64,000 nt of DNA from Halobacteriovorax sp. GB3 (GTDB lineage: Bacteria > Bdellovibrionota > Bacteriovoracia > Bacteriovoracales > Bacteriovoracaceae): NCBI RefSeq assembly GCF_028649655.1, contig NZ_JAQSLN010000003.1:310001-374000 (forward strand). The letters run 5' to 3'. The notes beneath the pieces were generated by a model. The model searched no databases. It had not been told where the DNA came from and saw only the letters and a list, made by a program, of their open reading frames with translations. Position 1 is the first letter of the stretch. The number at the start of each line of letters is the position of its first letter. Positions 7,066-53,968 of this stretch are shown in pieces. Both the position numbers and the translations under genes were made by a program.

Positions 7066-7098
7066 TAATGGTAGCTCGGGGCAGAGTTGAACTGCCGA
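7066..7098. other. attL, 33-bp prophage attachment repeat
   Basis: Identical to 46286-46318, beginning TAATGGTAGCTCGG and ending GAACTGCCGA. It copies only the 3' end of the tRNA-Met gene (CCA, acceptor 3' strand and most of the T arm on the minus strand); the following bases do not continue the tRNA, so no functional tRNA exists at this end. Consistent with integrase crossover in a tRNA 3' end, with the intact gene kept at the other end. Confidence 0.92.
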
Positions 7099-7241: not shown

Positions 7242-7940
7242 ATGCCGGTAAAAGCAGCAATAGAAGACAGATTAAAACACCCTATAATTGGAACGCTTGT
7301 GCTCTCATACACTGCACAGTGTTATGAGATTATACTTCAGCTTATGTCGACAACAATTACGGTTAATGACAAAATTCTTCTGGTCCAAAACTATTCTTTT
7401 CTTGACCCATGGAAAGTTGGGATATCAATTCTTTTTACTCTCGCTTGGATCGGGCTATCCCTCGCAGGAGACTCAATATCAGGGTATGTCTCAGGCTTAA
7501 GGTCTAAACATTTCGTTAACGCTAAGCTTAGAGGCAGTAGCTATCAAGACTTGAAGTCACAGGCCGCCAAATCAGTAATGTATGATAAAGTCAGCAATAC
7601 TTACGTGTACTATCTAAATCGAAGTAAAAGCTCTGGTCAAAAATCAACGAATGCGATTAACGAGCTTCAAAGAATAAGGGCAAAACTCGCATCAACAGTA
7701 AATTTAGACGTCGTTAATTCAATGCCCAGCAGAATCGACAATGTAATATCTGAAATTAAAGAATCTTACACACATGCTGAATATATTAAACAGTTACTTG
7801 AATTAAACAATGATGAGCAGCTGATAGTGAAACTGGATCGTCAGAGCGAGGTGATTAATTTTATTGATCATCAAAAGGTAACTAGAATACCTATTATTAA
7901 GAAAATTAAGAATAATCTATTCTTTAAAAAGAAAAAATAG
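7242..7940 (+). CDS. Membrane protein with RLKxP motif, possible superinfection-exclusion or defence protein
   Basis: Not recognised as a named family. 232 aa: a short cytoplasmic N-terminus with EDRLKHPIIGT at about residues 8-18, two membrane helices near 19-35 and 55-75 flanking a short loop, then a mostly helical soluble C-terminal part ending in a lysine-rich tail. The order RLKxP(I/L)(I/L)G, helix, loop, helix, soluble tail is shared with the 231-aa protein at 35098-35793, so the prophage carries two distant paralogues. The start follows TAGGAGAACGTA. As the first gene inside attL with its own promoter region it sits where lysogenic-conversion genes often lie; a role in blocking other phages is inference. 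Confidence 0.6.
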   Translation: MPVKAAIEDRLKHPIIGTLVLSYTAQCYEIILQLMSTTITVNDKILLVQNYSFLDPWKVGISILFTLAWIGLSLAGDSISGYVSGLRSKHFVNAKLRGSSYQDLKSQAAKSVMYDKVSNTYVYYLNRSKSSGQKSTNAINELQRIRAKLASTVNLDVVNSMPSRIDNVISEIKESYTHAEYIKQLLELNNDEQLIVKLDRQSEVINFIDHQKVTRIPIIKKIKNNLFFKKKK

Positions 7941-9587: not shown

Positions 9588-10256
9588 ATGTTAACAAAAT
9601 TAATCAAGGCAATTCGAAACTTTTTTAACCCTAAAGTAAAACAACAAATCCCACAGTCAGAGATTGATCAAATAACTATCCCTGAACTAAATCAAGGAAG
9701 CTCAATCAATGTAGAAGCTCCGAACTTACAGGATTTGTTACTTAAGAAATTTAAGGAAGATCTAAACAAGCTTAACACAAGCAACGAGGCGATAGAGCTC
9801 ATAAAAGAAAGAGAGGGTCTTTATTTGGACCCATATAAATGTTCCGCAGGAGTACCGACGATTGGATATGGAACAACATATTATCCAGATGGAAGTAAGG
9901 TGAAGATGAATGATCCTTCAATTTCAGAAATGCAAGCGTTGTACTTTTTAAAACATGAAATAATGGAAAAAGAAAAAGAAATTGAAACATTTTTCTATAA
10001 GAATAATATTCAATTTAACTGTAACGAATTCTCTGCTCTTGTCTCATTTGTTTATAACTTAGGAGCTGGCCCAGTTGTTAACAAAAGCAAATCTATGTCA
10101 AAAGCAATTCTGAGCCGAAACAAACTTAGAATTGCAGACACATTTCTTATATACAACAAGGCAAGAGTTGGTATTTTTAAACGATTGAAAGCACTGCGAG
10201 GCCTGACAATTCGAAGAGAAAAAGAAAGAGCTCTTTTCTTAAAGCCAATTAACTAA
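9588..10256 (+). CDS. Phage endolysin, GH24 lysozyme
   Basis: Muramidase that cuts peptidoglycan to release progeny. The catalytic region starts near residue 66 and has the GH24 pattern E-8aa-C-5aa-T (E76, C85, T91), then IGYGTT and EFSALVSFVYNLGAG. The Cys in place of the T4-type Asp is a known variant in this family. About 65 residues precede the catalytic domain; they begin MLTKLIKAIRNFF, an amphipathic or weakly apolar segment without a clear cleavable signal, so export probably needs a holin. Start follows AATGGAGGCTTT. Stop overlaps the end of a convergent gene by a few bases. Confidence 0.9.
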   Translation: MLTKLIKAIRNFFNPKVKQQIPQSEIDQITIPELNQGSSINVEAPNLQDLLLKKFKEDLNKLNTSNEAIELIKEREGLYLDPYKCSAGVPTIGYGTTYYPDGSKVKMNDPSISEMQALYFLKHEIMEKEKEIETFFYKNNIQFNCNEFSALVSFVYNLGAGPVVNKSKSMSKAILSRNKLRIADTFLIYNKARVGIFKRLKALRGLTIRREKERALFLKPIN

Positions 10257-10695
10257 TGATTTTTAGAATACCGTCTTTAATTAAGTGTAAAAGCTTACTT
10301 GCATGGATATGGGGGAAGGCAACATCCTCCCCCCCTCTGTTGACGACTAGCTTTAGGTATCCATCGTGATCACTAAGATCAATGATATTTACTCCGTCAC
10401 CTTTTTCAATTAATGTTTCTTTTTTATTAGAAGAAATTATTTTACTATTTTGAGTGACTTGATAAAAACGACTTGTAGAGAGTGGATTCAGTCCGGGCCA
10501 TAAGATCAGACAATCAATTGCAAAAATCTCGTCTTCTAAATATTCTTTTTTAGTGTGTCCGAAATTTTCTTGGCACAATTGTACTTTAACTTTGTCCTTG
10601 TTAATGCTCACAACCTTAGAAGGGCACTTATGAAGGGTGAAGTCAATTGAATCTTTTGGAATAACTAGAACAGTATCATTTACTTTTAAATTCAT
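10249..10695 (-). CDS. Hypothetical phage protein
   Basis: Not recognised. 148 aa, soluble, rich in beta strands, beginning MNLKVNDTVLVIPKDS, which resembles small barrel (SH3 or KOW-like) starts. It follows the secreted nuclease gene on the minus strand by 15 bp (AAGGAGATTATC before the ATG), making it the last gene of that operon. It converges on the endolysin gene with an 8-bp overlap. Confidence 0.6.
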   Translation of the reverse strand: MNLKVNDTVLVIPKDSIDFTLHKCPSKVVSINKDKVKVQLCQENFGHTKKEYLEDEIFAIDCLILWPGLNPLSTSRFYQVTQNSKIISSNKKETLIEKGDGVNIIDLSDHDGYLKLVVNRGGEDVAFPHIHASKLLHLIKDGILKIIS

Positions 10696-33908: not shown

Positions 33909-34205
33909 TTAATGAGAAACCGTTTCTTTAGAATAAACTGACTTGACAAATTTATATTCTTTTTCAAATCGCTCTCTTATGCGATCAGACATGCAGTTAC
34001 TAACAAAAATATCAGCACGAGGATTGGTGCAATAAACAGACCTAACCAATTCATTCATAAAAGATTGGTTTACCATTTCAATATTATCAAAATCGAGTTC
34101 ATACTCATCGTACGCTTGGCCATCTAGTGCCTTTTCTACTAACGATTTTGCTAAGATTCTTCCTGAAAGCATTTTTTGATTTGCGACAAATAGTTTGATC
34201 TTCAT
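33909..34205 (-). CDS. STAS-like DUF4325 protein
   Basis: 98 aa. SGRILAKSLVEKAL near residues 14-27 and LDFDNIEMVNQSFMNELVRS near 42-61 are the DUF4325 pattern, a STAS-like fold related to anti-sigma antagonists; the segment resembles D.....I..SF..E. Start overlaps the ATPase stop by 4 bases (ATGA), so the two are coupled. In known partner-switching systems a GHKL kinase and a STAS protein bind each other, which is the obvious model here. Confidence 0.82.
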   Translation of the reverse strand: MKIKLFVANQKMLSGRILAKSLVEKALDGQAYDEYELDFDNIEMVNQSFMNELVRSVYCTNPRADIFVSNCMSDRIRERFEKEYKFVKSVYSKETVSH

Positions 34206-35023
34206 AATTTAATCCTAAAATCAAGAGACGTACCTACAAATGGATTCTCAGTATGGAGCCTCGATACAATTTTACCACTAGTTGGAATATGAAAATAGCC
34301 ATCATGGCTCTGGATCGTTATTTCCCCCTTATAAGCTCTAACAATATTACATACTTCATTAAGCCCGATACCTCGCATAGGGTCTATAATAGATGATACA
34401 TGTCTCTCCATCGCTTTTTCAATAAGTTTATTTGATGCAAGGCCTAAAAGCTTGAAAGTTCTATTAAAAGCTCCCCGAAATCCAATACCTAAATCACAAA
34501 AAGAGAATTCAAACGTCCTTATACTGGGATAAAACTGGGCAGAAAAGTAACCCCACCCTTCATTTTCGCGATTTCCAGAATGGTAAAAAACATTGTTCGC
34601 AACTTCTGTGATCGCTGTATGCAAATCATCTTTAATATGGTCAATTGGTAGCCCGTTCAACTTAAGCGACTCCAAAACTAGGCCTGCAATATAATCATTG
34701 TTTTCATTATCTATTTTTTGTAGTTCGACTAATGAACGATTTTGGCGAACGATGTTAGGGTATGTGTAACTAGGGATAAGGTTAAATAGTCCCATTCTTC
34801 CACAGTAGGATTTTACTTTTTCGCACCTTGGATAAATGACATCTTTATGAATGCAATTTGAACGTGCTAAAAGATCGATTAGACACATAATATGAGTCAT
34901 ATCACTTGGATGCACATTTCTAACATTATAAAGACTCAGAGTAACCTTGGTTGAACTGTTTATTGTAGAAGGTGCTAACTTTCTATCGACTAAACTAGCC
35001 ATATCAATTATTTTGATCTTCAT
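34202..35023 (-). CDS. GHKL (HATPase) protein with N-terminal STAS-like region
   Basis: About 273 aa from the ATG at 35021-35023, preceded by GGAG; a longer form from 35050 has no support. N-terminal 110 residues include TLSLYNVRNVHPSDMTHIMC, a STAS-like strand-helix, and the C-terminal half is an ATPase of the histidine kinase/Spo0F-anti-sigma type: N box ITEVANNVFYHSG, G1 DLGIGF, G2 RGIGLNEV, G3 FVGTSLDF. No phosphoacceptor-His domain is seen. It could phosphorylate or sequester the downstream STAS-like protein. Substrate unknown. Confidence 0.8.
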   Translation of the reverse strand: MKIKIIDMASLVDRKLAPSTINSSTKVTLSLYNVRNVHPSDMTHIMCLIDLLARSNCIHKDVIYPRCEKVKSYCGRMGLFNLIPSYTYPNIVRQNRSLVELQKIDNENNDYIAGLVLESLKLNGLPIDHIKDDLHTAITEVANNVFYHSGNRENEGWGYFSAQFYPSIRTFEFSFCDLGIGFRGAFNRTFKLLGLASNKLIEKAMERHVSSIIDPMRGIGLNEVCNIVRAYKGEITIQSHDGYFHIPTSGKIVSRLHTENPFVGTSLDFRIKL

Positions 35024-35097: not shown

Positions 35098-35793
35098 CTA
35101 AGTCAACTTTTTTGGCTTAAACAATGATTCACTTTCTTCTTGCTTAACGGTCAGGAACAACAATAGTTCAGACAATTCTTTCTTTACAGTTTTTAAATCT
35201 GAATCAAGTTCATAAATTTGATCTGTAATCTCTCCATAGAGTTCAATACCGACATCCTCAGGGGCATAATATCTCAACTTATTACTGTGCCTATCAAAAT
35301 TCTCTAGTAATTTACTCATTCGACTCTCGGTTAAATTAAGACTAATAATTCTATTTATATGTTCATGAGTCTTTTCCTTTGCAAGTCCATTGTTTCGAAT
35401 AATTCTTTTCATACGTGAAGCCATTTTTTGGTCACTATCAATAGGCGCCATTAACCTATCAATCAAAGAGAGAGCTCCTTCTTTAAAATTCTCTAGCATT
35501 CTAAATACAACCTCTCCTAGAGAAGCCACTAGCGCCCACATAGCTGCTAGTAACAAAGGAAACAATACGGTTTTTACTCCTCCGAATGTATTGACATAAC
35601 TATTTATGGTTTCAATCTTCTGTATAGAAGACTGACTGGAAATAAGCGCCAAACTTATCGTGTAATGGAAAGAAAAGAAAATAATGACATAACTCCCTAA
35701 CAAAGGAGCTTTAAGTCTATAGTTTACAGCTCCTGCAACCTCTTTCCCGAGACTTTTGAATTCATGAACCGTTTCACTCACCTTATTTAACAT
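35098..35793 (-). CDS. Membrane protein with RLKxP motif, paralogue of 7242-7940
   Basis: 231 aa: NYRLKAPLLGSYVIIFFSFH at about residues 25-44, two membrane helices (about 33-50 and 75-95), then a soluble helical tail of about 130 residues. Order and motif equal those of the protein at 7242-7940. First gene of the minus-strand cassette, 75 bp before the GHKL ATPase. It may be the membrane effector of a partner-switching module, by analogy with defence systems that end in a two-helix membrane protein. This is inference; no family name is recognised. Confidence 0.6.
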   Translation of the reverse strand: MLNKVSETVHEFKSLGKEVAGAVNYRLKAPLLGSYVIIFFSFHYTISLALISSQSSIQKIETINSYVNTFGGVKTVLFPLLLAAMWALVASLGEVVFRMLENFKEGALSLIDRLMAPIDSDQKMASRMKRIIRNNGLAKEKTHEHINRIISLNLTESRMSKLLENFDRHSNKLRYYAPEDVGIELYGEITDQIYELDSDLKTVKKELSELLLFLTVKQEESESLFKPKKLT

Positions 35794-35887: not shown

Positions 35888-36268
35888 CTAGCTAGCCCAT
35901 AGAGCATCCATGAGCTCTTCTAAAACTGCGACTTCTTTTTCATCACGGCCCTGCTCATTTTGCATTAATTTTATTTGCTGAATAATTTCAAATTCTCTTT
36001 TTTCGACTCGGTTTAATTGAGCATAATCATATTTAAAGTCATCGTAATCTACAGCTTCTTCAAGCTCTACAAATTCGACATTTTCAAATAAGAATGTCTT
36101 TACTTTTTTAGTCTGATTACAAACGGCTCTAAAAAGACGGTCATCAACAATCTTGCGTGGTATGAGCTCTCTTACTGCACCTTTGTTACTACCACCGTGA
36201 TATTTTATCTTGATCACTTCACCACTTTTAATGGCCTCTTCAATTCTCTTCGTAACTGACATATTCAC
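35888..36268 (-). CDS. WYL-like domain protein
   Basis: 126 aa. Residues about 8-70 (VIKIKYHGGSNKGAVRELIP, LFRAVCNQTKKVKTFLFENV) resemble the SH3-like barrel of WYL domains that bind nucleic acid or nucleotides and regulate phage and defence genes. No HTH accompanies it. The C-terminal part is helical and acidic. It lies between the defence-like cassette and HTH genes; a regulator of that cassette is plausible. Confidence 0.6.
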   Translation of the reverse strand: MNMSVTKRIEEAIKSGEVIKIKYHGGSNKGAVRELIPRKIVDDRLFRAVCNQTKKVKTFLFENVEFVELEEAVDYDDFKYDYAQLNRVEKREFEIIQQIKLMQNEQGRDEKEVAVLEELMDALWAS

Positions 36269-36320
36269 TCCCTTGTTGTTTTTCTATATTCGGAGAGTGA
36301 AACAGAGTGATTGAGTCAAT

Positions 36321-36554
36321 TTATCTTAATGTGGATAGAATTCCGTATAGTACAAAGTCAGAGCTTGTTTCATAGTATGAAATAGCTCGACCTACAAAGG
36401 CCAGAAACTCACGTCCAGAAGCTCCACGAGTCTCGTACTTGTGTAAGGTCTTGATTGAGACTTGGAGATCATACGCAGCTTCTTTAATTGTGATTCTTCT
36501 TTTTTCTCTAAGATGCCTCAATCGAATGGCAGTTTGAGTTGGGCAGTACTTCAT
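36321..36554 (-). CDS. Small XRE-like HTH protein
   Basis: 77 aa. RLRHLREKRRITIKEAAYDL then SIKTLHKYETRGA form a clear HTH covering residues 11-50. Probably a phage regulator. Faces the same way as the WYL-like gene and follows the 36630-36854 HTH gene. Confidence 0.8.
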   Translation of the reverse strand: MKYCPTQTAIRLRHLREKRRITIKEAAYDLQVSIKTLHKYETRGASGREFLAFVGRAISYYETSSDFVLYGILSTLR

Positions 36555-36629
36555 TGAGAACTATTTTAGCCCAAGAAGATCAAGGAAACTTAATTAATCA
36601 ACAAAATAATTTCTACATTCCGTAGAAAA

Positions 36630-36854
36630 TTAAATTGTCACTTTTTTGATCAATTTCCAAAGCTCTACTTCATAAAATTCACATAGAGTTCTTAAATATG
36701 ACAAAGAGACTTGTTTCTCTCCAAGTTCTATTGCGGAAAGATAGCTGATTGAAATTCCAGAGTAATCTGAAACTTGTTTTAAAGTGAAATTATTTTTACT
36801 GCGAAGCTTTTTTAATTCGGTCCCGAGCAAAATAAAAAAGTCATTATCGTTCAT
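36630..36854 (-). CDS. XRE-family transcriptional regulator
   Basis: 74 aa. Typical XRE HTH: KKLRSKNNFTLKQVSDYSGI, SISYLSAIELGEKQVSLSYL. Ends in a short helical tail (FYEVELWKLIKKV). It is divergent from the receiver-domain gene with about 140 bp between, so it may control both directions. Confidence 0.85.
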   Translation of the reverse strand: MNDNDFFILLGTELKKLRSKNNFTLKQVSDYSGISISYLSAIELGEKQVSLSYLRTLCEFYEVELWKLIKKVTI

Positions 36855-36995
36855 TAATTTATGATTTTACGTTTAAAAAATAGACAAATTCCTCTCTCAG
36901 AGGAATTGTGCATACGAAAGTTTTTCTTAAGTTCTATTCGGCAACTGATAAGATTTATTCACAGTTGAATATTGCGTTGAAGGAGAAGAAGGAAG

Positions 36996-37361
36996 ATGAA
37001 AACCATTTTACTAGTTGATGATGAAGCGTTTATTAGAAAACTCATGAGGGAAGAAATTGAAGAACGATTCAAAGTTAACATCAAAGAGTTCGATTGCTTA
37101 AAGAAGGCCCTACTCTACTCAAAAAACAAAAGGCCTGATCTGATAATTACAGATTACAAATTTGAAAACTCAGATCTATTAGATGCAATTGAGCACAACG
37201 GAAAACCAGATTGCGAAATGGTTTTATTTACAGCAATGGGAATTTCAGATGTAAAAATAAAGGAGATTGGATTTAGCTTCACTGCTACGAAGCCATCTTT
37301 TCACAAGATGATTACTTTCTTAGGTACGGTCTGTACTAGTCACCAGAAGCTTTGCTCTTAG
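36996..37361 (+). CDS. Stand-alone response-regulator receiver domain protein
   Basis: 121 aa made of one receiver domain with all key residues: acidic pair D8/D9, phosphoacceptor D53 (LIITDYKF), T79 (VLFTAM) and K99 (TATKP). No output domain follows. GAAGGAGAAGAAGGAAG precedes the ATG. It overlaps the convergent repressor-like gene by 26 bp. As a CheY-like protein on a prophage it could link host phosphorelay signals to the lysogeny decision; no cognate kinase is seen, apart from the GHKL protein at 34.2-35.0 kb, which lacks a phosphoacceptor His domain. Confidence 0.85.
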   Translation: MKTILLVDDEAFIRKLMREEIEERFKVNIKEFDCLKKALLYSKNKRPDLIITDYKFENSDLLDAIEHNGKPDCEMVLFTAMGISDVKIKEIGFSFTATKPSFHKMITFLGTVCTSHQKLCS

Positions 37362-37908
37362 CTTTAACTTCTTTTGAAACATTCACAGGATCATCGTCTC
37401 TGGCCCAGTGTGCACGAACAAAGAATTTACCGGCCTTAGTGTACATATTTTCAAGGGCGATGATTCTGGCCCTATTATTTAAAGTCTCATTTCTAGTTAA
37501 GTAAGAGAACATTTCATCTTCATCATCAGGATCAATTGCGTGAGGATCTCTCAGGGCAAGATCAACAAGCTCAGCAATTCTCTGCTCAACTTCAAGAGCA
37601 TTAGATAGTTCACGCAAATAGTTCGGCAAAATGAGTTCTTGGATATCAACTGAAGAGATACTGTTGCTCGCATGAACAGCTTCATTCCTTTTTTCCCTAA
37701 AGTCGTCTGAGTCAAGCAGTTTTGCAACAGGTACTTCAAGAATGCTCGATAGACTTTCTAAAATTTCAGCAGAAGGAAAGCTAACGCAATTTTCATAACT
37801 TCTAATAGTAGAATGCGAGACATCACAAGCTTCTGCGAGAGAGGCTTGCGTAAATTTCCCCTTCCTGAGGGCTTTTAAATTTCGTGAAAATGTCTTTTTT
37901 ACATTCAT
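37336..37908 (-). CDS. CI-like repressor (XRE HTH)
   Basis: 190 aa. N-terminal HTH at about residues 8-60 (NLKALRKGKFTQASLAEACD, VSHSTIRSYENCVSFPS); the C-terminal part is helical, not a LexA-type peptidase, so it would not self-cleave on DNA damage by the usual route. Divergent from the Cro-like gene at 38001 with palindromes in the 90-bp gap. Position and size fit the lysogeny repressor. Confidence 0.75.
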   Translation of the reverse strand: MNVKKTFSRNLKALRKGKFTQASLAEACDVSHSTIRSYENCVSFPSAEILESLSSILEVPVAKLLDSDDFREKRNEAVHASNSISSVDIQELILPNYLRELSNALEVEQRIAELVDLALRDPHAIDPDDEDEMFSYLTRNETLNNRARIIALENMYTKAGKFFVRAHWARDDDPVNVSKEVKAKSKASGD

Positions 37909-37933
37909 AATGTAAGTTTAACCCATTAAAAAC

Positions 37934-37991
37934 ATTGTAAAATACAATTTAAATGTATTAACCTATTGCTCAATATACATTCTGCTTGTAT
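37934..37991. promoter_or_regulatory. Candidate operators between divergent repressor genes
   Basis: Perfect palindrome ATTGTA-AAA-TACAAT at 37934-37948 and a second dyad ATACA-ttctgct-TGTAT at 37975-37991, both containing a TACA/TGTA core, in the AT-rich gap between the CI-like and Cro-like genes. Likely binding sites for one or both products. Confidence 0.6.
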
Positions 37992-38000
37992 GTTAATTTC

Positions 38001-38240
38001 ATGAGTACACGAAACAGTAGAGCTACAAACGTAGCACTTTTTAAAGAATTGGTTGGGAAGCGCGAGTACGGAGAGTCCTATTTGGCGATTGGCACAGGAC
38101 TCGCTCCTTCCACGATTACTAGAATTTTGCATGGAGGCCATGTTCCTGGAAAGCAGACTAGGAAACTTATTTGTCTCTATTTTAAAGTTAGCGAGGACCA
38201 GCTTTTCCCACTTTCTACAACTCAGGGGGAAGCTGCCTAG
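38001..38240 (+). CDS. Cro-like small DNA-binding protein
   Basis: 79 aa from the ATG at 38001. LAIGTGLAPSTITRILHGGH (about residues 28-47) is an HTH of the phage type. Divergent from the CI-like gene. A longer frame from 37986 has no better start. Confidence 0.7.
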   Translation: MSTRNSRATNVALFKELVGKREYGESYLAIGTGLAPSTITRILHGGHVPGKQTRKLICLYFKVSEDQLFPLSTTQGEAA

Positions 38241-38840
38241 CTTACTTAATAATTGAAGAACATATTTTGCATTTACTACTTGTAAAACTTTCATAAAGCC
38301 ATTTAAGCAAATCTTTATGAAGCAAATATAAAAACAAAGTTTGGATAAAAAATTAATGACACGAATTTCAGCAATAGAAGAAGTTTTTCTTTTAAGGCAT
38401 TCGTGTAACTAAAATTTAAAAGAGGGGAAGTTTCTTAAAGTCGAAAGGTCCTGGTAATGGGTTACCTTCTTTCATTCGAATTGATTCCAATGATTGAAGA
38501 CCTAAAACCATTTCCAGTTCCGCAGCTTAAACTTCTAGAGGTATTAAAGTAACCTGTCTCTACAGCTTGAATCAGTGCTACTAACACATCGACAAGACAG
38601 TAGAACCTGCAATTGCATTAACCTCTATTTATTCCCTCAAAAACCCAAAAGATGCAGACCGCTTTGGTTAGTAGCCTAGCTAGGACTTAAGATTGGGTAA
38701 GTCAACATGCCGTTCAAGAAGTACCTCCTTGTTCAGGTTATTAACTTAGGCGGAATGTATGGGTAAATAGAATATTTTGAAACTTAAATTGGACGTATTT
38801 GTAAATATTTTATGCGCTACAGAATTTTAAAAGGATTTTA
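38241..38840. other. 600-bp gap, no confident gene
   Basis: No long reading frame on either strand. On the minus strand, 38416 to about 38525 is open and ends with NPLPGPFDFKKLPLF and stop; a second minus frame nearby also stays open over roughly 60 codons. This could be the remains of a gene or an untranslated RNA. It contains the palindrome CCTAGCTAGG (38675-38684) and the short hairpin GGTAA-TGGG-TTACC (38452-38465). It could hold a leader or origin-like region before the early operon. Confidence 0.4.
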
Positions 38841-39407
38841 ATGGATTTAGTTCACCCAGAACAAATTTCAGCATGGATCTTGGAAGGCCTTAAATCGCAA
38901 AGCTGGTCTAAAGAGATCCTTGCTAAAAAGTCTGGTCTAAAACTAACTGACATTAAAAAAATAATTGATTGTTCACTCGTTCCCAACAATGAGCATTTGA
39001 TTCGATTGGCAAAGGCCTTCGAATCAAAGCTTGTTGTGAAAAAAATCACTGATGAGAACAGAGAGATAAATCGATTACACGAACGTGTTGAAAAGCTTGA
39101 AGAGGTGATTTCATTTCTTCACTCAGAGCGAGACAGGTTAATTGACCTGGTTAAACTTGCAACAGAAGTTGGTGGTCTTAAGGATGATGAGCGGTTTAAT
39201 TCACCTGGAGTAAAAAGAGAAAGAGATGAATCCAAAAACGATACCACGAAAAGAGTTAGTCATAAGACTTCAAAAAAGAGTGAACGAACTAGAAGAAAAA
39301 CAACAAAAGAACCCGTGCCTTGCTACGGAGAAGTTCTTTACTTCAATTTTAATGCTGAACAAGATCATGCTAATGGGGATGAAATAGGAGTTAAAAATGC
39401 AAATTAA
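38841..39407 (+). CDS. HTH and coiled-coil regulatory protein
   Basis: 188 aa. N-terminal HTH-like segment (SWSKEILAKKSGLKLTDIKK) at about residues 21-40, a coiled coil (about 69-110, REINRLHERVEKLEEVISFL), then a very basic, disordered stretch (about 125-155) and a short final part. First gene of the rightward early operon; AAAGGATTTTA precedes the ATG. Overlaps the next HTH gene by 11 bp. Confidence 0.7.
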   Translation: MDLVHPEQISAWILEGLKSQSWSKEILAKKSGLKLTDIKKIIDCSLVPNNEHLIRLAKAFESKLVVKKITDENREINRLHERVEKLEEVISFLHSERDRLIDLVKLATEVGGLKDDERFNSPGVKRERDESKNDTTKRVSHKTSKKSERTRRKTTKEPVPCYGEVLYFNFNAEQDHANGDEIGVKNAN

Positions 39408-41871: not shown

Positions 41872-42324
41872 ATGAAAGAACGAAATACTCATCAATATTT
41901 ACTTGAATCAAACTTAGAACATCGAATGAAGTTCGTTTATCTAAGATTTAATGTACCAGGTTCATTTGATGATTTCTTTCAAGAATACAGACTAACAATT
42001 TTAGATGGAAGGGCCAAATCTCAAACTCTTGATCAGTTTGCAATAGATTATTTGAGAAAAAAGCTTGGAAGAAATGGGGAACGACGCCAGGAAAGCATTG
42101 TTCTCGAATATTTCGATCAGCAATCAATTGAATTCCCACTTTCTTCCATAGAAACGAATAAGTTCATAAGTAGCTTAATCGGGACAGAAAGAGCTCTTTT
42201 TATTTTAAGATTTCAATTTGGATTTACAGAAGCTGAAATGGCCCACGTTTTTTCAATTACACCATCAAGGATTTCACAAGTTTTAAATCAAATTTTAAAG
42301 AAGGCAAGAAAATATGGAAGTTAG
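41872..42324 (+). CDS. Sigma-factor-like protein with region-4 HTH
   Basis: 150 aa. C-terminal FTEAEMAHVFSITPSRISQV then LNQILKKARK (about residues 116-146) matches sigma-70 region 4, which binds the -35 element. The N-terminal half is shorter than a full sigma region 2 but contains FDDFFQEYRLTIL. Could direct RNA polymerase to late promoters or act as an anti-termination or activator protein. No clear ribosome-binding site before the ATG. Overlaps the next gene by 11 bp. Confidence 0.75.
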   Translation: MKERNTHQYLLESNLEHRMKFVYLRFNVPGSFDDFFQEYRLTILDGRAKSQTLDQFAIDYLRKKLGRNGERRQESIVLEYFDQQSIEFPLSSIETNKFISSLIGTERALFILRFQFGFTEAEMAHVFSITPSRISQVLNQILKKARKYGS

Positions 42325-42796
42325 AAATTATATTGAAGCAAGGATGTACTTCAATAGCAATAGAAAGACATTAAACATCGAAAGACTCATTGAGCTGATA
42401 AAAAGCTTAAAAACACTTCTTAAGAGCTCTTTCTTTAGAGAAGAAAAAAACGAAATTCAAGATTTAATTGAAGATGTAGAAATTAGAATCACTGAGATAC
42501 GAAAGTTTCAGCAAGTTATGAAGCAAAAGAAAGAAGAAAAAGAGAGGATACGAAAAGAAAGCACTTATCAACTTCTCCCCTCTTCAAGAGTCACAGTAAT
42601 AAGAATGGCCCCAACGAATAGTCTTTTGTTTGATCTTGAATATGAAGCAATTAGTACAGCTCTTATCAAGACAAGAGGGAATAGAACTAAAGCAACTAAA
42701 GAGCTTGGAATATCAATTCGAACTCTAAGAAATAAACTTAATGAATATAAGAAGAAAGGACTTTGGCATGAGTATCACGTATCAAGAGTATGTTAA
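42314..42796 (+). CDS. Fis-type (HTH_8) DNA-binding protein
   Basis: 160 aa. Residues about 112-150 (YEAISTALIKTRGNRTKATK, LGISIRTLRNKLNEYKKKG) are the Fis/NtrC C-terminal HTH with the GNRTKATKELGIS core. The N-terminal 80 residues are helical and charged (coiled coil). No AAA domain, so it is not a full sigma-54 activator. Overlaps both neighbours. Possible activator of late genes together with the sigma-like protein. Confidence 0.82.
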   Translation: MEVRNYIEARMYFNSNRKTLNIERLIELIKSLKTLLKSSFFREEKNEIQDLIEDVEIRITEIRKFQQVMKQKKEEKERIRKESTYQLLPSSRVTVIRMAPTNSLLFDLEYEAISTALIKTRGNRTKATKELGISIRTLRNKLNEYKKKGLWHEYHVSRVC

Positions 42797-46285: not shown

Positions 46286-46318
46286 TAATGGTAGCTCGGG
46301 GCAGAGTTGAACTGCCGA
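46286..46318. other. attR, 33-bp attachment repeat within tRNA-Met
   Basis: Identical to 7066-7098; here it continues into the whole tRNA gene, which stays intact. Prophage right boundary. Confidence 0.92.
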
Positions 46319-49190: not shown

Positions 49191-50327
49191 GTGAAAAGAC
49201 ACCAACTGACTTTTCTTATGCTGCTTACGTTTATTTCAGGGGCCAATGCTCAAACGCTCACTGGAAAACTTGGTTCACCCAATAACTTTAATAAGGTAAT
49301 TGACTCGGCCAAAGTAAACTTCAAGATGATTGGAACTGAACAGAGTGGAGATTTAAACAAATCAAGCGTTTTAAATTCTTCATTGGGACTAAGTGCCAAG
49401 GGTTCAATCTTTCAAAATACTGAAGTCATTTTTGATGGAAGTCTTTACTTCTCTAGTGGAAGCACAAGTAGTGTTTACGACAACAATCGCCTGACAGAGA
49501 GAAATGGAACTTCACTTAAAAATGCCTACATCCACTACAACTACCAAGATCTCTTATCTCTGAAGGCAGGGGCCATCAATCAAAGAGAACAAGAAAATCT
49601 CATTGTAGTAGGAAGAAAAGCATTCTTAGGAGCAAAAGAAACTCTTTCATTTAATCTCTTTGATCTAAAAGTCACAATGAATGCCACTCAAACAAGAGCA
49701 AGATCAGAATCGTCAAAAGAGGGCCTTGGCAATCTAGATGAAGGATCACCTCTTTTTATGCGTGAATCCATCTCGCTTGAAACAATCAATGATTATATTG
49801 GATTAAAAGTAATCGTTGGACACTTTGCTTACGATAATCTCAGCAATGATGTGGCCTATAATTCACAATTTCATGGAAACACAGTTTCTGGTTATACAAA
49901 AACAAACTCAGAATTCGATTACAACTATGTCGGTTGGGATTACAAGTTAGAAGCTTCGGCTTCATTAAATCACAACCTATCAGTTGGTGCTGGCGTGAGT
50001 TACGTGATTAACCAAGGAGCACCGGATTCAAAAAATAGAGGATCTGCCCTGATTGGTTCAACCAAATATACATCGGGAGATTGGACTTATAAAGTTACCT
50101 ACAACAAACTCAATATCCAATCCGACACAGCTCCGGCCCTTTATCTCAACATGGCCCAAACTCCAAACACAACATCAGACTCTTTAGAATTAACAGCATT
50201 AAATATTAGTTCAGATTTTGAACTTCGTCTTTTCTATCAAAATAGCAAACCACTTGAACAAAACTTTTATCAAGACAATAACCAAATCATTCAACTTGAA
50301 TTAAGGAAGGGATATGAAATTTTCTAA
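49191..50327 (+). CDS. Exported beta-rich protein, possible outer-membrane barrel
   Basis: Not recognised. 378 aa; GTG start after AGGGAATTTT. Signal peptide LTFLMLLTFISGANAQ, cleavage near residue 21. The mature part alternates polar and apolar residues and ends in aromatic GYEIF, as in outer-membrane porin-like barrels. Overlaps the lipoprotein gene by 14 bp. Confidence 0.65.
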   Translation: MKRHQLTFLMLLTFISGANAQTLTGKLGSPNNFNKVIDSAKVNFKMIGTEQSGDLNKSSVLNSSLGLSAKGSIFQNTEVIFDGSLYFSSGSTSSVYDNNRLTERNGTSLKNAYIHYNYQDLLSLKAGAINQREQENLIVVGRKAFLGAKETLSFNLFDLKVTMNATQTRARSESSKEGLGNLDEGSPLFMRESISLETINDYIGLKVIVGHFAYDNLSNDVAYNSQFHGNTVSGYTKTNSEFDYNYVGWDYKLEASASLNHNLSVGAGVSYVINQGAPDSKNRGSALIGSTKYTSGDWTYKVTYNKLNIQSDTAPALYLNMAQTPNTTSDSLELTALNISSDFELRLFYQNSKPLEQNFYQDNNQIIQLELRKGYEIF

Positions 50328-52917
50328 ACTTCTAGGGTTTCTTTTAACTGCAGGTGCTCTTTATGGATGTTCTGCAAGCGTCGATGAAAACAAAGAAGAA
50401 TCAGTTAAAACAATTTCAAATCTTGTCCAAATGACGAGCTTAAGAATTGAATCAATTCAAAAAATCAGAGAATCAGAAACATCTCTGCACACCATCACAG
50501 CAAAATCTTATACAATGAAAGCCTGCTTCAAAGAAAAAGCTCTTGGTAAGAAAATCCAATTTAAAGATGTTATCCTTGAAGGAAAGAGTTTTCCAAAGTC
50601 ACTTAAAAGCACTGATGTTGAAGGGTGCGTAACTTGGGAAGAATTCACTGAAATGGACTACACTCGCTCTCGTGGTCTTATTGAATACACAAGAAAAATT
50701 TCAATTGCCGATACAAACCTTTCAAGAGAGATCAACTTTGGAATTGACCCTCTTGAAGATAAGCTTGTTCGCCTTGATCACTCAATCAATAGAACATCTA
50801 CTATCATGAGAAAAATGGACGCCTCTCAGATTATCGATATCGCGCAAATCAATGCCTATTTTAAGAGTTATACGACTCCTCAGTACGGATCGATTCCAGT
50901 TGTTGGTTTCAAGGCCAACATCAAAACATGTCTTCGTGTTGGGGCCAGTGCCGATCGTCTTCAAGGTGAAGAAGTTGAAGCAACCCTAACAAATTTAGAA
51001 ACTGGTGAAGAGATGACGATTCCACAAAAAACCGATAACTTCGGTTGTGTGGATTTAACTTTTGATTCATCTTATGAGAGATACTCTGTTCCAAGATACA
51101 TTCCTTACAATCTTTCATTTAAAGCCGTTAACCCATCTTTTATGGGAGTGACATCTGAAAGAGAAATTTGTCTTTCTCCGTGGCAACCAAATGGAATTTT
51201 TGGACACGATACAAGGTCAGGAGCTTGTCCGGAAAACCCAATCCAACGAGCCCCAAAACTCCACTTCAATGACGTACGTTATGTGTATATGGGAAATAAA
51301 GACGATGGCTTCAATGTAAATAAATACCTCGATATGGAAATGACAAAATCTTTTCTTATCCGACTTCATCCAGTAATTGACTATGGTCACAACTTTTCAA
51401 ATGAAAGACACTATAGTCAAATCTATTCGGGACGCTTTAAGCTGAATTTTATTTTGCTTTCACCTAAAGAAAATCATCTAGATATTACAGAAGAGAACAT
51501 CGATGACTGGCAAGTTCTTTCAGGAGACGAAAAAGAAGTTGAGATTGTTGATGGGGTTATTAAGCAAAGAATAGATCTACCACTTAGTTTTCACAATCTC
51601 TCACGAGCTGTTCATAGAACTTATGGTGTTATCATGCTCTCTCCTACAAGAGATTCTGAATATAGTGACCTTAAGCCAGTTATGGCCGCGGGACTTTTTG
51701 ATGCAGCGGCAAGACATTTTGGTACAGTTCTTCAGACATCAGTTGGGATTGGTGAAGAGTTTAAAACGAATTTTCTTTCTGAAAAGCTCTATGGAAAATT
51801 TAAAAATTTTAAACAGACACTTAAAAACAATAATCTGAAATCTAATTGGAAAGCTTCACCATTGGAAGTATTCTACGCCTTACATAATAAAACCGAAAAT
51901 TATGATGATCTGGACTCACTTGAACTAAAAATGTTCAATAAGATCTGGCAACATAGAGGTATTAAACTATCTGAGAAAGATTTTAAAGACCTAACAAGTG
52001 GACTTGCAACAAGAGAGCAAAAGAGAAATTTCTGCCAGATTTACTACATTGAGAATCTCAAGTCTCTTCGCGGTAGAGCTCTCACTGAAATGAAATCGCA
52101 ATTTAGAGACTGTACAATAGACCCTGATAAGTTTTTTAACTTCAAAAGTTTTGAACATATTATTGCGATTACTGGAAAAGCTGAAAAAAACGTTGGCGGG
52201 TATGGCTTCTCTGAAACTGATCGATTAAATGTTAATACAGGCTTTTGTATGAACTACAATAATTCAACAAGATTTTCGACATCCAAAAGAATTGGAACGG
52301 ATCTTGGGATTGGAATGAAAATACCACTCCCACTTGATGCGCTCTCGATTGGTGGCGGAATGAAGCTGGATTACTCTATGATGTGGGGTACAGACGAATC
52401 TACGGGAAGCAGCAATAGAGGGTGTGTAAACAGAAACAAAAACCTAAATGTTGATAAGTTAAGCCTAAGATTTAAGGCGAGAACAAAATCGTGTTTACTC
52501 GTACAAGTAAAAGAATACGACAAAGAAGAATACTCTCCATCTTGGTTTGATTCAAATACTCGCGCTCTAAGAAAAGTTGTTTCAACAACAGAAAAAGAGC
52601 GAATCCACCTTTGTGCTAACAAAGATGAAGATAAAGAAATTTCTGAGAACTGGTATTTCATTGGAGAGGAAGGACAGCATGTCCATCCTTTAAGAGACAA
52701 GTGGGATATTAGAGAAAATATGCTTCACAAAGTTATCCGCGGAGAGGCCAATTACACAAAGTGGATGAAAATTATGACAGATGAAACAAAGAAGATCTTT
52801 CTTGTTAAAAAAGATAAATTTGAAGATCCAATGAAGTACTTTGATAGCATTTATTCAAATGATATCAATGTTCCACTAATGTATGATTCAGCTATTCCTG
52901 GATCAATTTGGAAATAG
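50314..52917 (+). CDS. Large lipoprotein, unknown function
   Basis: Not recognised. 867 aa. Lipobox LYGCSAS (Cys19) after a short signal. Two similar modules seem to follow one another: around residues 60-120 (SYTMKACFKEKALGKKIQFK) and 185-245 (GFKANIKTCLRVGA), each with a CVTW/CVDL-type end, suggesting a duplicated beta domain. Many Cys residues follow. Overlaps the barrel-like gene before it, so the two may work together at the outer membrane. Ends 26 bp into the convergent oxidoreductase gene. Confidence 0.68.
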   Translation: MKFSKLLGFLLTAGALYGCSASVDENKEESVKTISNLVQMTSLRIESIQKIRESETSLHTITAKSYTMKACFKEKALGKKIQFKDVILEGKSFPKSLKSTDVEGCVTWEEFTEMDYTRSRGLIEYTRKISIADTNLSREINFGIDPLEDKLVRLDHSINRTSTIMRKMDASQIIDIAQINAYFKSYTTPQYGSIPVVGFKANIKTCLRVGASADRLQGEEVEATLTNLETGEEMTIPQKTDNFGCVDLTFDSSYERYSVPRYIPYNLSFKAVNPSFMGVTSEREICLSPWQPNGIFGHDTRSGACPENPIQRAPKLHFNDVRYVYMGNKDDGFNVNKYLDMEMTKSFLIRLHPVIDYGHNFSNERHYSQIYSGRFKLNFILLSPKENHLDITEENIDDWQVLSGDEKEVEIVDGVIKQRIDLPLSFHNLSRAVHRTYGVIMLSPTRDSEYSDLKPVMAAGLFDAAARHFGTVLQTSVGIGEEFKTNFLSEKLYGKFKNFKQTLKNNNLKSNWKASPLEVFYALHNKTENYDDLDSLELKMFNKIWQHRGIKLSEKDFKDLTSGLATREQKRNFCQIYYIENLKSLRGRALTEMKSQFRDCTIDPDKFFNFKSFEHIIAITGKAEKNVGGYGFSETDRLNVNTGFCMNYNNSTRFSTSKRIGTDLGIGMKIPLPLDALSIGGGMKLDYSMMWGTDESTGSSNRGCVNRNKNLNVDKLSLRFKARTKSCLLVQVKEYDKEEYSPSWFDSNTRALRKVVSTTEKERIHLCANKDEDKEISENWYFIGEEGQHVHPLRDKWDIRENMLHKVIRGEANYTKWMKIMTDETKKIFLVKKDKFEDPMKYFDSIYSNDINVPLMYDSAIPGSIWK

Positions 52918-53968
52918 CTTTTGCTCCTAAGAATGGAAAAGTAAAGCCGTTCTTATAGAGACCTGTCATTGAATAAATATTACCAAAAGGCCCTTTTTCC
53001 AATTCACCGAAAAAGGGCCTTCTTTTTTGCCCCTTATGACGAAGACCTGTTTTAATCGTGCCCGATTCAAAAGCAGGAAGAACAAGGTCACCTTTTAAAA
53101 GATCACGAAAAAAATTATACTGACTTTTCAACTCACTAACGCTAGCACAGAGAAGGTCTTCTTTTACAGTCGAACCACCAATCATAATTTGTCTGCTACG
53201 GCGGCGATATATGAGATTATAGTGACGATTAGCAAGAACAAAACTCTTATTACCAAAGTCACAATCATCAAAGACAATATAGCTGCCAGAAACAAATTTT
53301 GATTTCGTTAGAGATTCTTGTTTTAAGTTATTCTGAAAGAACTTTGAATAGGCTCCACTAGCAATGATAACTTTATTTGTAACAAACGATTCACAACCGC
53401 AATCTAACTGGAGATGGCCCTCTTTTTTTAAGACCTCACGGCATGTGAGCTTCTTAATCGTTACATCAAGTTTTTCTATATAAGCCTGCTCAAGTGCACT
53501 TAAGCACTTTGAAGGATCAATAAAATAGGCCTTAAAACTAACGCCTTCAAAACTCTCAGACAAAGAGAGGTCTCCAAGGGTATTTAAAGAATCACAATGG
53601 CCAAAGCGGCGAATAAAATCCTCACGCCCCTTAGGACTTTGATCTGTTAATGAATGTTGAAGGCCTTGCTCATGACACTCAGGATGAGATTCATAAAAAG
53701 AAATGGCCTCTTCATAAGAGTCGAAAATGAAATCACCTAGATCAGAGATTCCCTTTTGCACGCCACTTCTGCATACAATACTTGTTGTATTGAGACTACA
53801 TGGTGGAAAAACATCATCATTATAAACAACAAGTATTTTCTTTTTAGAAAAGTAATCAGATTTAGCGAACTCTCTTAGAAGACACCGGGCAGCAATCCCG
53901 TAACCTACAAGAATTATATCAAATTTTTCCACGTTGTTAGACTTTTTTAACGTATCACCCATTGCCAA
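52892..53968 (-). CDS. FAD-dependent oxidoreductase (DAO-like)
   Basis: 358 aa. FDIILVGYGIAARCLLREFA near residues 16-36 is the dinucleotide-binding motif (GxGxxx), KVIIASGAYSKFF the second FAD motif, and KTGLRHKGQKRRPFFGELEK plus SMTGLYKNGFTFPFLGAKAI resemble the C-terminal region of D-amino-acid oxidase-type flavoenzymes. Substrate unknown. Converges on the lipoprotein gene. Confidence 0.82.
   Translation of the reverse strand: MAMGDTLKKSNNVEKFDIILVGYGIAARCLLREFAKSDYFSKKKILVVYNDDVFPPCSLNTTSIVCRSGVQKGISDLGDFIFDSYEEAISFYESHPECHEQGLQHSLTDQSPKGREDFIRRFGHCDSLNTLGDLSLSESFEGVSFKAYFIDPSKCLSALEQAYIEKLDVTIKKLTCREVLKKEGHLQLDCGCESFVTNKVIIASGAYSKFFQNNLKQESLTKSKFVSGSYIVFDDCDFGNKSFVLANRHYNLIYRRRSRQIMIGGSTVKEDLLCASVSELKSQYNFFRDLLKGDLVLPAFESGTIKTGLRHKGQKRRPFFGELEKGPFGNIYSMTGLYKNGFTFPFLGAKAISKLIQE

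What the first reader, a model, noticed from the sequence alone, without database searches (positions are those of the whole stretch)
36996..37361. Stand-alone CheY-like receiver beside the lysogeny switch
All phosphorylation residues are present (D8/D9, D53, T79, K99) but no output domain. It lies between HTH genes and overlaps the repressor gene tail-to-tail. It could connect host signals, for instance the predatory cycle, to prophage induction.
Basis: inference. Interest (0 to 1): 0.5.

Follow-up and report, generated by a model that had tools for sequence, protein, structure and literature searches.

The report
Lone signal receiver in a prophage
A dormant bacterial virus carries one small gene for a bacterial signal-receiver protein next to the genes that seem to keep it dormant; the gene looks real and able to take up the signal, but nothing yet shows that it controls the virus's awakening.

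Summary
ORF 36996-37361 (+) encodes a 121-aa receiver (PF00072, 38 bits against a cut-off of 30.2) with all five catalytic residues (D8, D9, D53, T79, K99) and a complete predicted (beta-alpha)5 fold, without output domain. It lies in a myovirus-like prophage (33-bp repeats at 7066 and 46286) between two HTH genes and overlaps the repressor-like gene tail-to-tail by 26 bp. The overlap carries little weight: it covers the end of the last helix and the tail, and a host ORF pair in the window overlaps by the same 26 bp. The host genome has 88 receiver matches, 29 of the other 87 in frames of 160 aa or less, and 50 HisKA matches, none in the prophage. Stand-alone receivers are known in Alteromonas phages. 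The sequence is unusual: nothing above 37% identity was found, and it lacks D+4 Pro, D+8 Gly and K-3 aromatic together, as 2 of 79 canonical host receivers do. I favour an accessory gene that diverts host kinase signalling (0.4). A direct effect on the repressor stays possible (0.2) but rests on adjacency. New member of a known kind.

The parts
36996..37361 (+). stand-alone CheY-like receiver, 121 aa
36980..36995 (+). purine-rich Shine-Dalgarno-like stretch before the receiver
   Evidence: read from the sequence
36887..36907 (.). perfect 9-3-9 palindrome AATTCCTCTCTCAGAGGAATT between HTH74 and the receiver; candidate operator, or terminator of leftward transcripts (-11.4 kcal/mol, z -2.87 on the - strand)
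   Evidence: nine palindromes with arms of 9 or more in the window against 3-9 in 8 Markov-chain sequences, so not significant by itself
36630..36854 (-). 74-aa HTH_3 regulator (HTH74), divergent from the receiver
36321..36554 (-). 77-aa HTH_31 regulator (HTH77)
35888..36268 (-). 126-aa WYL-like protein (WYL126), PHROG 8498
   Evidence: (Pfam WYL below cut-off)
37336..37908 (-). 190-aa repressor-like protein, N-terminal HTH_3, resembles RstR, TrbA and DicA below their cut-offs, no S24 peptidase match
37336..37361 (.). 26-bp tail-to-tail overlap of receiver and repressor genes
37899..37915 (.). perfect palindrome TTACATTCATAATGTAA over the repressor start codon, candidate operator
38001..38240 (+). 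79-aa Cro-like candidate; weak HTH matches on the longer frame 37986-38240
   Evidence: no NCBIfam match
7066..7098 (.). left 33-bp attachment repeat
46286..46318 (.). right 33-bp attachment repeat over the tRNA-Met 3' end

Best explanation
An accessory (moron-type) prophage gene. Shown: an intact receiver with the residues needed for phosphorylation, without output domain, on the strand opposite to the repressor, inside a complete-looking prophage in which no HisKA kinase was found. Inferred: it is made in the lysogen or early in infection, is phosphorylated at D53 by one or more host histidine kinases, and works by occupying those kinases and draining or relaying their phosphoryl groups, so that a host pathway is dampened or redirected in the phage's favour. 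On this reading it is beside the lysogeny switch but not part of it.
For: All five catalytic residues and the full fold. 50 HisKA matches in the host genome (46 over the cut-off), none in the prophage interval C3:317066-356318, so a donor is probably a host kinase or a small-molecule donor. It lacks the K-3 aromatic, D+4 Pro and D+8 Gly together; PMC12632262 (passages read) describes the K-3 aromatic as part of the coupling of phosphorylation to the alpha4-beta5-alpha5 surface, and a sink or shuttle would not need that coupling (inference). Own ribosome-binding stretch and orientation opposite to the repressor. Analogies: phage protein PIT4 binds several host histidine kinases (PMC10714779, abstract and conclusion read); the single-domain regulator MrrA is phosphorylated by at least six kinases (PMC5964349, abstract read).
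Against: No partner kinase is identified: over the presumed kinase-contact surface the best match to a host receiver scores 40, which equals the median best score among host receivers (45 of 89 score no higher). Lack of Tyr/Phe at K-3 alone is not rare in this host (58 of 79 canonical receivers have it), and the loss of three positions also fits decay. The kinetics cannot be predicted: D+2 is Lys and T+2 Met; [quoted passage not shown] No expression data. Accessory status is inferred from orientation and lack of relatives.
Confidence: 0.4

Rival explanations
1. One reading: the receiver binds the adjacent repressor (or HTH74) in a phosphorylation-dependent way and so ties prophage induction to a host signal.
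For: Adjacency; the repressor has no S24 peptidase match, so an antirepressor-type inducer would make sense; a stand-alone receiver binding a DNA-binding regulator is known: VemR with HrpG (PMC9923393, abstract read).
Against: The overlap is uninformative; conservation of the pair could not be tested, because no close relative of either protein was found; K-3 is Thr; no match of the repressor palindrome at the receiver promoter region.
Confidence: 0.2
2. A passenger: a captured chromosomal receiver no longer under strong selection.
For: Fifth lowest of 88 PF00072 scores in the genome (37.4 bits); D+4, D+8 and K-3 positions all lost; D-to-T distance 26 against 28-30 in most host receivers and T-to-K 20 against mostly 22; tip branch 1.83 against a median of 1.20, though not among the six longest.
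Against: Frame open, all five catalytic residues intact, ribosome-binding stretch, confident fold.
Confidence: 0.22
3. The DNA arrangement matters rather than the protein: the leftward repressor transcript runs antisense through the receiver gene, so repressor and receiver expression exclude one another.
For: The first leftward terminator-like site after the repressor gene is at 36907-36887, beyond the receiver; rightward, the sites before the far end of the repressor gene lie inside the receiver gene (37276) or inside the repressor gene (37859). The leftward hairpin folds better than 198 of 200 shuffles (the site was picked before the test).
Against: The scan is a consensus scan; the hairpin is equally a candidate operator of HTH74, about 33 bp from its start; no RNA data.
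Confidence: 0.1
4. Split response regulator: the receiver is the input half, and a separate prophage DNA-binding protein, for instance the Fis-type HTH protein 42314-42796 or HTH74, is the output half.
For: The prophage encodes a Fis-type HTH like the C-terminus of NtrC/FlbD regulators (HTH_8 3.1e-12; FlbD model positions 395-443, 1e-11).
Against: The Fis-type gene lies 5 kb away; no relative was found that shows the two fused or paired; no central AAA+ domain match in the Fis-type protein.
Confidence: 0.08

Closest known systems
Single-domain response regulators (CheY, Spo0F, DivK, MrrA, VemR)
   Same: receiver only, five catalytic residues, (beta-alpha)5 fold; query TM-scores 0.69-0.83 in the 50 PDB rows shown, which include CheY, Spo0F, DivK and KdpE
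   Different: phage-borne; lacks D+4 Pro, D+8 Gly and the K-3 aromatic; no identified kinase
Stand-alone receivers of Alteromonas phages V22 (gp30, 149 aa) and vB_AspP-H4/4 (gp44, 153 aa)
   Same: phage-encoded receiver, no other Pfam family over its cut-off, all five residues; V22 gp30 also lacks D+4 Pro; V22's gene is listed as a class II auxiliary metabolic gene in PMC7289586 (passages read)
   Different: 19.5% and 17.5% identity; both keep D+8 Gly and K-3 Tyr; they sit beside tail-fibre genes (V22) or holin and terminase genes (H4/4), not beside a repressor; PMC7289586 reports no integrase or other lysogeny gene in V22
Prophage two-component pair of Mycobacterium prophiGD05-1 (genes 75 and 76)
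   Same: prophage-borne receiver
   Different: there the receiver protein is 225 aa, annotated as DNA-binding, beside an annotated histidine kinase gene; here neither
Phage kinase-binding protein PIT4
   Same: proposed way of working: a phage protein acting on host histidine kinases (PMC10714779)
   Different: function analogy only; sequences not compared
Phage VP882 VqmA (quorum-sensing control of lysis)
   Same: idea of a temperate phage reading a host signal; seen only in a search listing with the start of the abstract (PMC10426928)
   Different: a receptor-transcription factor for an autoinducer, not a receiver; not compared here

Membership tests
Receiver domain (PF00072) | score over the curated cut-off | tested here: met
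   38 bits against 30.2
Receiver domain (PF00072) | five conserved residues DD, D, T/S, K (definition in PMC12632262) | tested here: met
   D8, D9, D53, T79, K99
Receiver domain (PF00072) | (beta-alpha)5 fold | tested here: met
   model pLDDT 89.3, built with receivers in its alignment; PDB receivers at query TM 0.69-0.83 in the rows shown
Receiver domain (PF00072) | usual but not defining: Pro D+4, Gly D+8, aromatic K-3 | tested here: not met
   Glu57, Leu61, Thr96; of 79 canonical host receivers 46 keep all three, 31 lack one or two, 2 lack all three
Pseudo-receiver | lacks at least one of the five residues | tested here: not met
   all present
Single-domain response regulator | no output domain | tested here: met
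   121 aa, last helix 102-115; one Pfam family only
Single-domain response regulator | phosphorylation by a histidine kinase | not testable with these tools
   needs biochemistry
Alteromonas-phage stand-alone receivers | close relationship in sequence | tested here: not met
   17.5-19.5% identity
Phage two-component pair | kinase gene in the same prophage | tested here: not met
   0 of 50 HisKA matches lie in the prophage interval; other kinase dimerisation families were not searched; the GHKL protein 34205-35023 has one short HATPase_c_5 match just over the cut-off (22.2 against 22 bits, residues 214-245)
Component of the lysogeny switch / antirepressor | binds or inactivates the repressor | not testable with these tools
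   adjacency only
SOS-cleavable (S24) repressor, for the neighbour 37336-37908 | S24 peptidase domain | tested here: not met
   no S24 match in Pfam at E 0.1 or NCBIfam at 0.05; the structure model is too poor to judge

The most novel reading that the evidence does not exclude
A lysogeny switch wired to host two-component signalling: phosphorylation of this single receiver by a host kinase relieves (or reinforces) a repressor that lacks self-cleavage, so that the prophage reads the host's own sensory network in place of, or in addition to, DNA damage.
Probability: 0.15. Interest if true: 0.75.

Novelty: new member of a known kind. Interest (0 to 1): 0.3.

Why it matters
If the receiver acts on the repressor, it would be a minimal route from a host sensor kinase to prophage induction. 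If it acts on host kinases, it is another case of a phage tapping two-component signalling, in a host rich in such systems (88 receiver and 50 HisKA matches). Either way one small gene with a single presumed phosphorylation site makes the question easy to test.

Tried and rejected
Search for relatives of the receiver: none confirmed in viral contigs (this scan finds close relatives only); one 28% match in genome contigs, by my reading a two-domain regulator next to a kinase-like gene; one 33.7% match in phages; 0 of 96 other genomes at E 1e-8; 8 of 289 other genomes at E 1e-6, 30-37% identity. I read the neighbours of 5 of those 8 loci: by my reading NtrC-, flagellar-, CheB- and glutaredoxin-side genes, no phage genes; no family search was run on them. 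Repressor, WYL126, GHKL and HTH74 proteins: no relative confirmed in viral contigs; repressor 0 of 96 other genomes at E 1e-5. DNA 36000-39000: no match in phages.

Related prophage: the terminase has a match in 1 of 58 other genomes; that contig was read and none of its frames came up with my receiver profile at E 1e-3, so it gives no comparison for the switch region.

phrog_731 as a sign of a phage-specific family: rejected. It matches in 39 of 39 genomes searched (own one included), and the listed matches run over nearly its whole length in frames of about 220-275 aa, by my reading two-domain regulators. Receiver hits in the phage collection (160 records; 220): I looked at 7 of these records (frames). 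MT835480, the one record that P0001 itself hit, has by my reading motor-switch and export genes around the receiver, so it looks like bacterial DNA; OQ658365 likewise reads as bacterial.

Tree placement: inconclusive, supports 0.735, 0.741 and 0.834 on very long branches, then 0.278 and 0. Kinase-contact surface match to one host receiver: chance level. Repressor structure: unusable, pLDDT 54.8 without alignment. A looser repressor half-site pattern gave 3 hits against 1.9 expected, none in the prophage. Papers: 10 searches; among the titles and abstract openings listed (lists were capped, e.g. 20 of 55 and 20 of 71) I saw no paper on a stand-alone receiver acting on a prophage repressor; only open-licence PMC papers are held, so this is no proof of absence. 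The search for Spo0F K56 found no paper, so that remark is recall.

Rows dropped or doubled before counts: the receiver profile was built only from loci whose unreversed translation had no stop; 106 domain hits were collapsed to 90 including the query; 3 of 89 host receivers lacked an aligned landmark and 7 of the remaining 86 lacked a catalytic residue, leaving 79. In alignment A1 the rows L006 and L017 are the same host receiver. The frame-length count printed is not used, because fetched stretches cut the frames; 29 of 87 comes from the open-frame column, counted by hand. The 88 are domain matches, some of them two in one protein.

Full report
What is there. The frame 36996-37361 (+) gives a 121-residue protein with one Pfam match, Response_reg, E 2.1e-9 and 38 bits against a cut-off of 30.2. 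The five residues that define a receiver in PMC12632262 (passages read) are all present: D8, D9, D53, T79, K99. AlphaFold2 with a 36-row alignment of the window protein and host receivers gives mean pLDDT 89.3 and alternating strands and helices, five of each, the last helix 102-115. Foldseek finds 434 PDB chains at E 0.001 or better, and the top rows shown are receivers.

The element. The window holds a myovirus-like prophage: terminase, portal, head, tail sheath, tape measure, baseplate, endolysin, helicase loader and integrase matches, bounded by an exact 33-bp repeat at 7066 and 46286 that overlaps the 3' end of a tRNA-Met gene, about 39.2 kb apart. Of 88 PF00072 matches of the genome only this one lies in the interval, and of 50 HisKA matches none does.

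The neighbourhood. To the right, 37336-37908 (-) is a 190-aa HTH_3 protein resembling RstR, TrbA and DicA below their cut-offs, without an S24 peptidase match. It diverges from a small gene 38001-38240 (+) across a gap with a perfect 7-3-7 palindrome over its start codon. That is a typical repressor/Cro layout, inferred from anatomy; the HTH matches of the small gene are weak. To the left, a run of genes on the minus strand starts with two small HTH proteins and a WYL-like protein. The receiver has its own purine-rich ribosome-binding stretch and points at the 3' end of the repressor gene.

Weight of the overlap. The 26 shared bases fall in codons 114-121 and the stop of the receiver, i.e. the end of the last helix and the tail, and in the end of the repressor. 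In the same window the host ORFs 50314-52917 (+) and 52892-53968 (-) also overlap tail-to-tail by 26 bp, and the prophage ORFs 9588-10256 (+) and 10249-10695 (-) by 8 bp. The overlap is therefore no evidence of a functional link. What it does allow is transcripts running into each other: the first leftward terminator-like site past the repressor is at 36907-36887, on the far side of the receiver.

How unusual is a stand-alone receiver here? Not very. Of the 87 other receiver matches in the genome, 29 lie in open frames of 160 aa or less. In phages, stand-alone receivers are known: Alteromonas phage V22 gp30 (149 aa) and vB_AspP-H4/4 gp44 (153 aa) have PF00072 as their only Pfam family over its cut-off, and the V22 paper lists its gene as a class II auxiliary metabolic gene (PMC7289586, passages read). 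The viral structure library lists further receiver-like proteins of phages and giant viruses, among them a 143-aa one of an uncultured Caudovirales phage named CheY-like. A Mycobacterium prophage carries a two-domain response regulator next to a kinase gene.

How unusual is this sequence? More so. No relative above 37% identity was found in the searches made with it. It has Glu at D+4, Leu at D+8 and Thr at K-3, where receivers usually have Pro, Gly and Tyr/Phe; of 79 host receivers with all five catalytic residues, 46 keep all three positions, 19 lack one, 12 lack two and 2 lack all three. Lack of Tyr/Phe at K-3 alone is not rare here: 58 of the 79 have it. The D-to-T and T-to-K distances are 26 and 20 residues against mostly 28-30 and 22 in the host. 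PMC12632262 names the K-3 aromatic as part of the coupling of phosphorylation to the alpha4-beta5-alpha5 surface. So the chemistry looks kept while the usual output route looks lost. This leans, without proof, to a sink, shuttle or kinase-binding role, or to decay, rather than to a classical phosphorylation-switched contact with the repressor.

Mechanism. I commit to host-signalling interception (0.4): phosphorylation by host kinases with diversion of the phosphoryl group or occupation of the kinase. The residues and fold are shown; everything from the kinase onward is inferred. PIT4 shows that a phage protein can bind several host kinases (PMC10714779, abstract and conclusion read), and MrrA shows that one single-domain receiver can serve at least six kinases (PMC5964349, abstract read); these are analogies. 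A try to spot a mimicked host receiver by the presumed kinase-contact surface gave a chance-level result.

Verdict. A real gene of a known kind in an interesting place, with an unusual sequence. The link to lysogeny is untested rather than refuted.

Noticed in passing
33909-35023 (-): STAS-like DUF4325 protein (98 aa) next to a GHKL-type ATPase (273 aa; DrmA-like region in PADLOC), resembling partner-switching pairs (recall).
   Followed up: partly
41872-42796 (+): Sigma-70 region-4-like protein followed by a Fis-type HTH protein resembling the tail of FlbD/NtrC, both in the prophage's right arm.
   Followed up: partly
7242-7940 (+) and 35098-35793 (-): Two hydrophobic proteins, one near the prophage's left end and one left of the switch, share a weakly similar N-terminal stretch (27% over 79 aa, E 9e-5); function unknown.
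   Followed up: partly
35888-36268 (-): Short WYL-like protein (PHROG 8498) without a recognised HTH, behind two small HTH genes.
   Followed up: partly
38743-38807: Two 27-bp imperfect direct repeats 38 bp apart (70% identical) just upstream of gene 38841-39407; possible operator pair.
   Followed up: no
MT835480.1 and OQ658365.1 in the phage collection: Public 'phage' records whose receiver genes sit among what read as bacterial chromosomal genes; receiver counts in phage collections may be inflated.
   Followed up: partly
G079:C22 (L014-L016): 49.9-kb contig whose two ends share one gene, so possibly a circular phage genome, with a terminase 44% identical to that of this prophage.
   Followed up: partly
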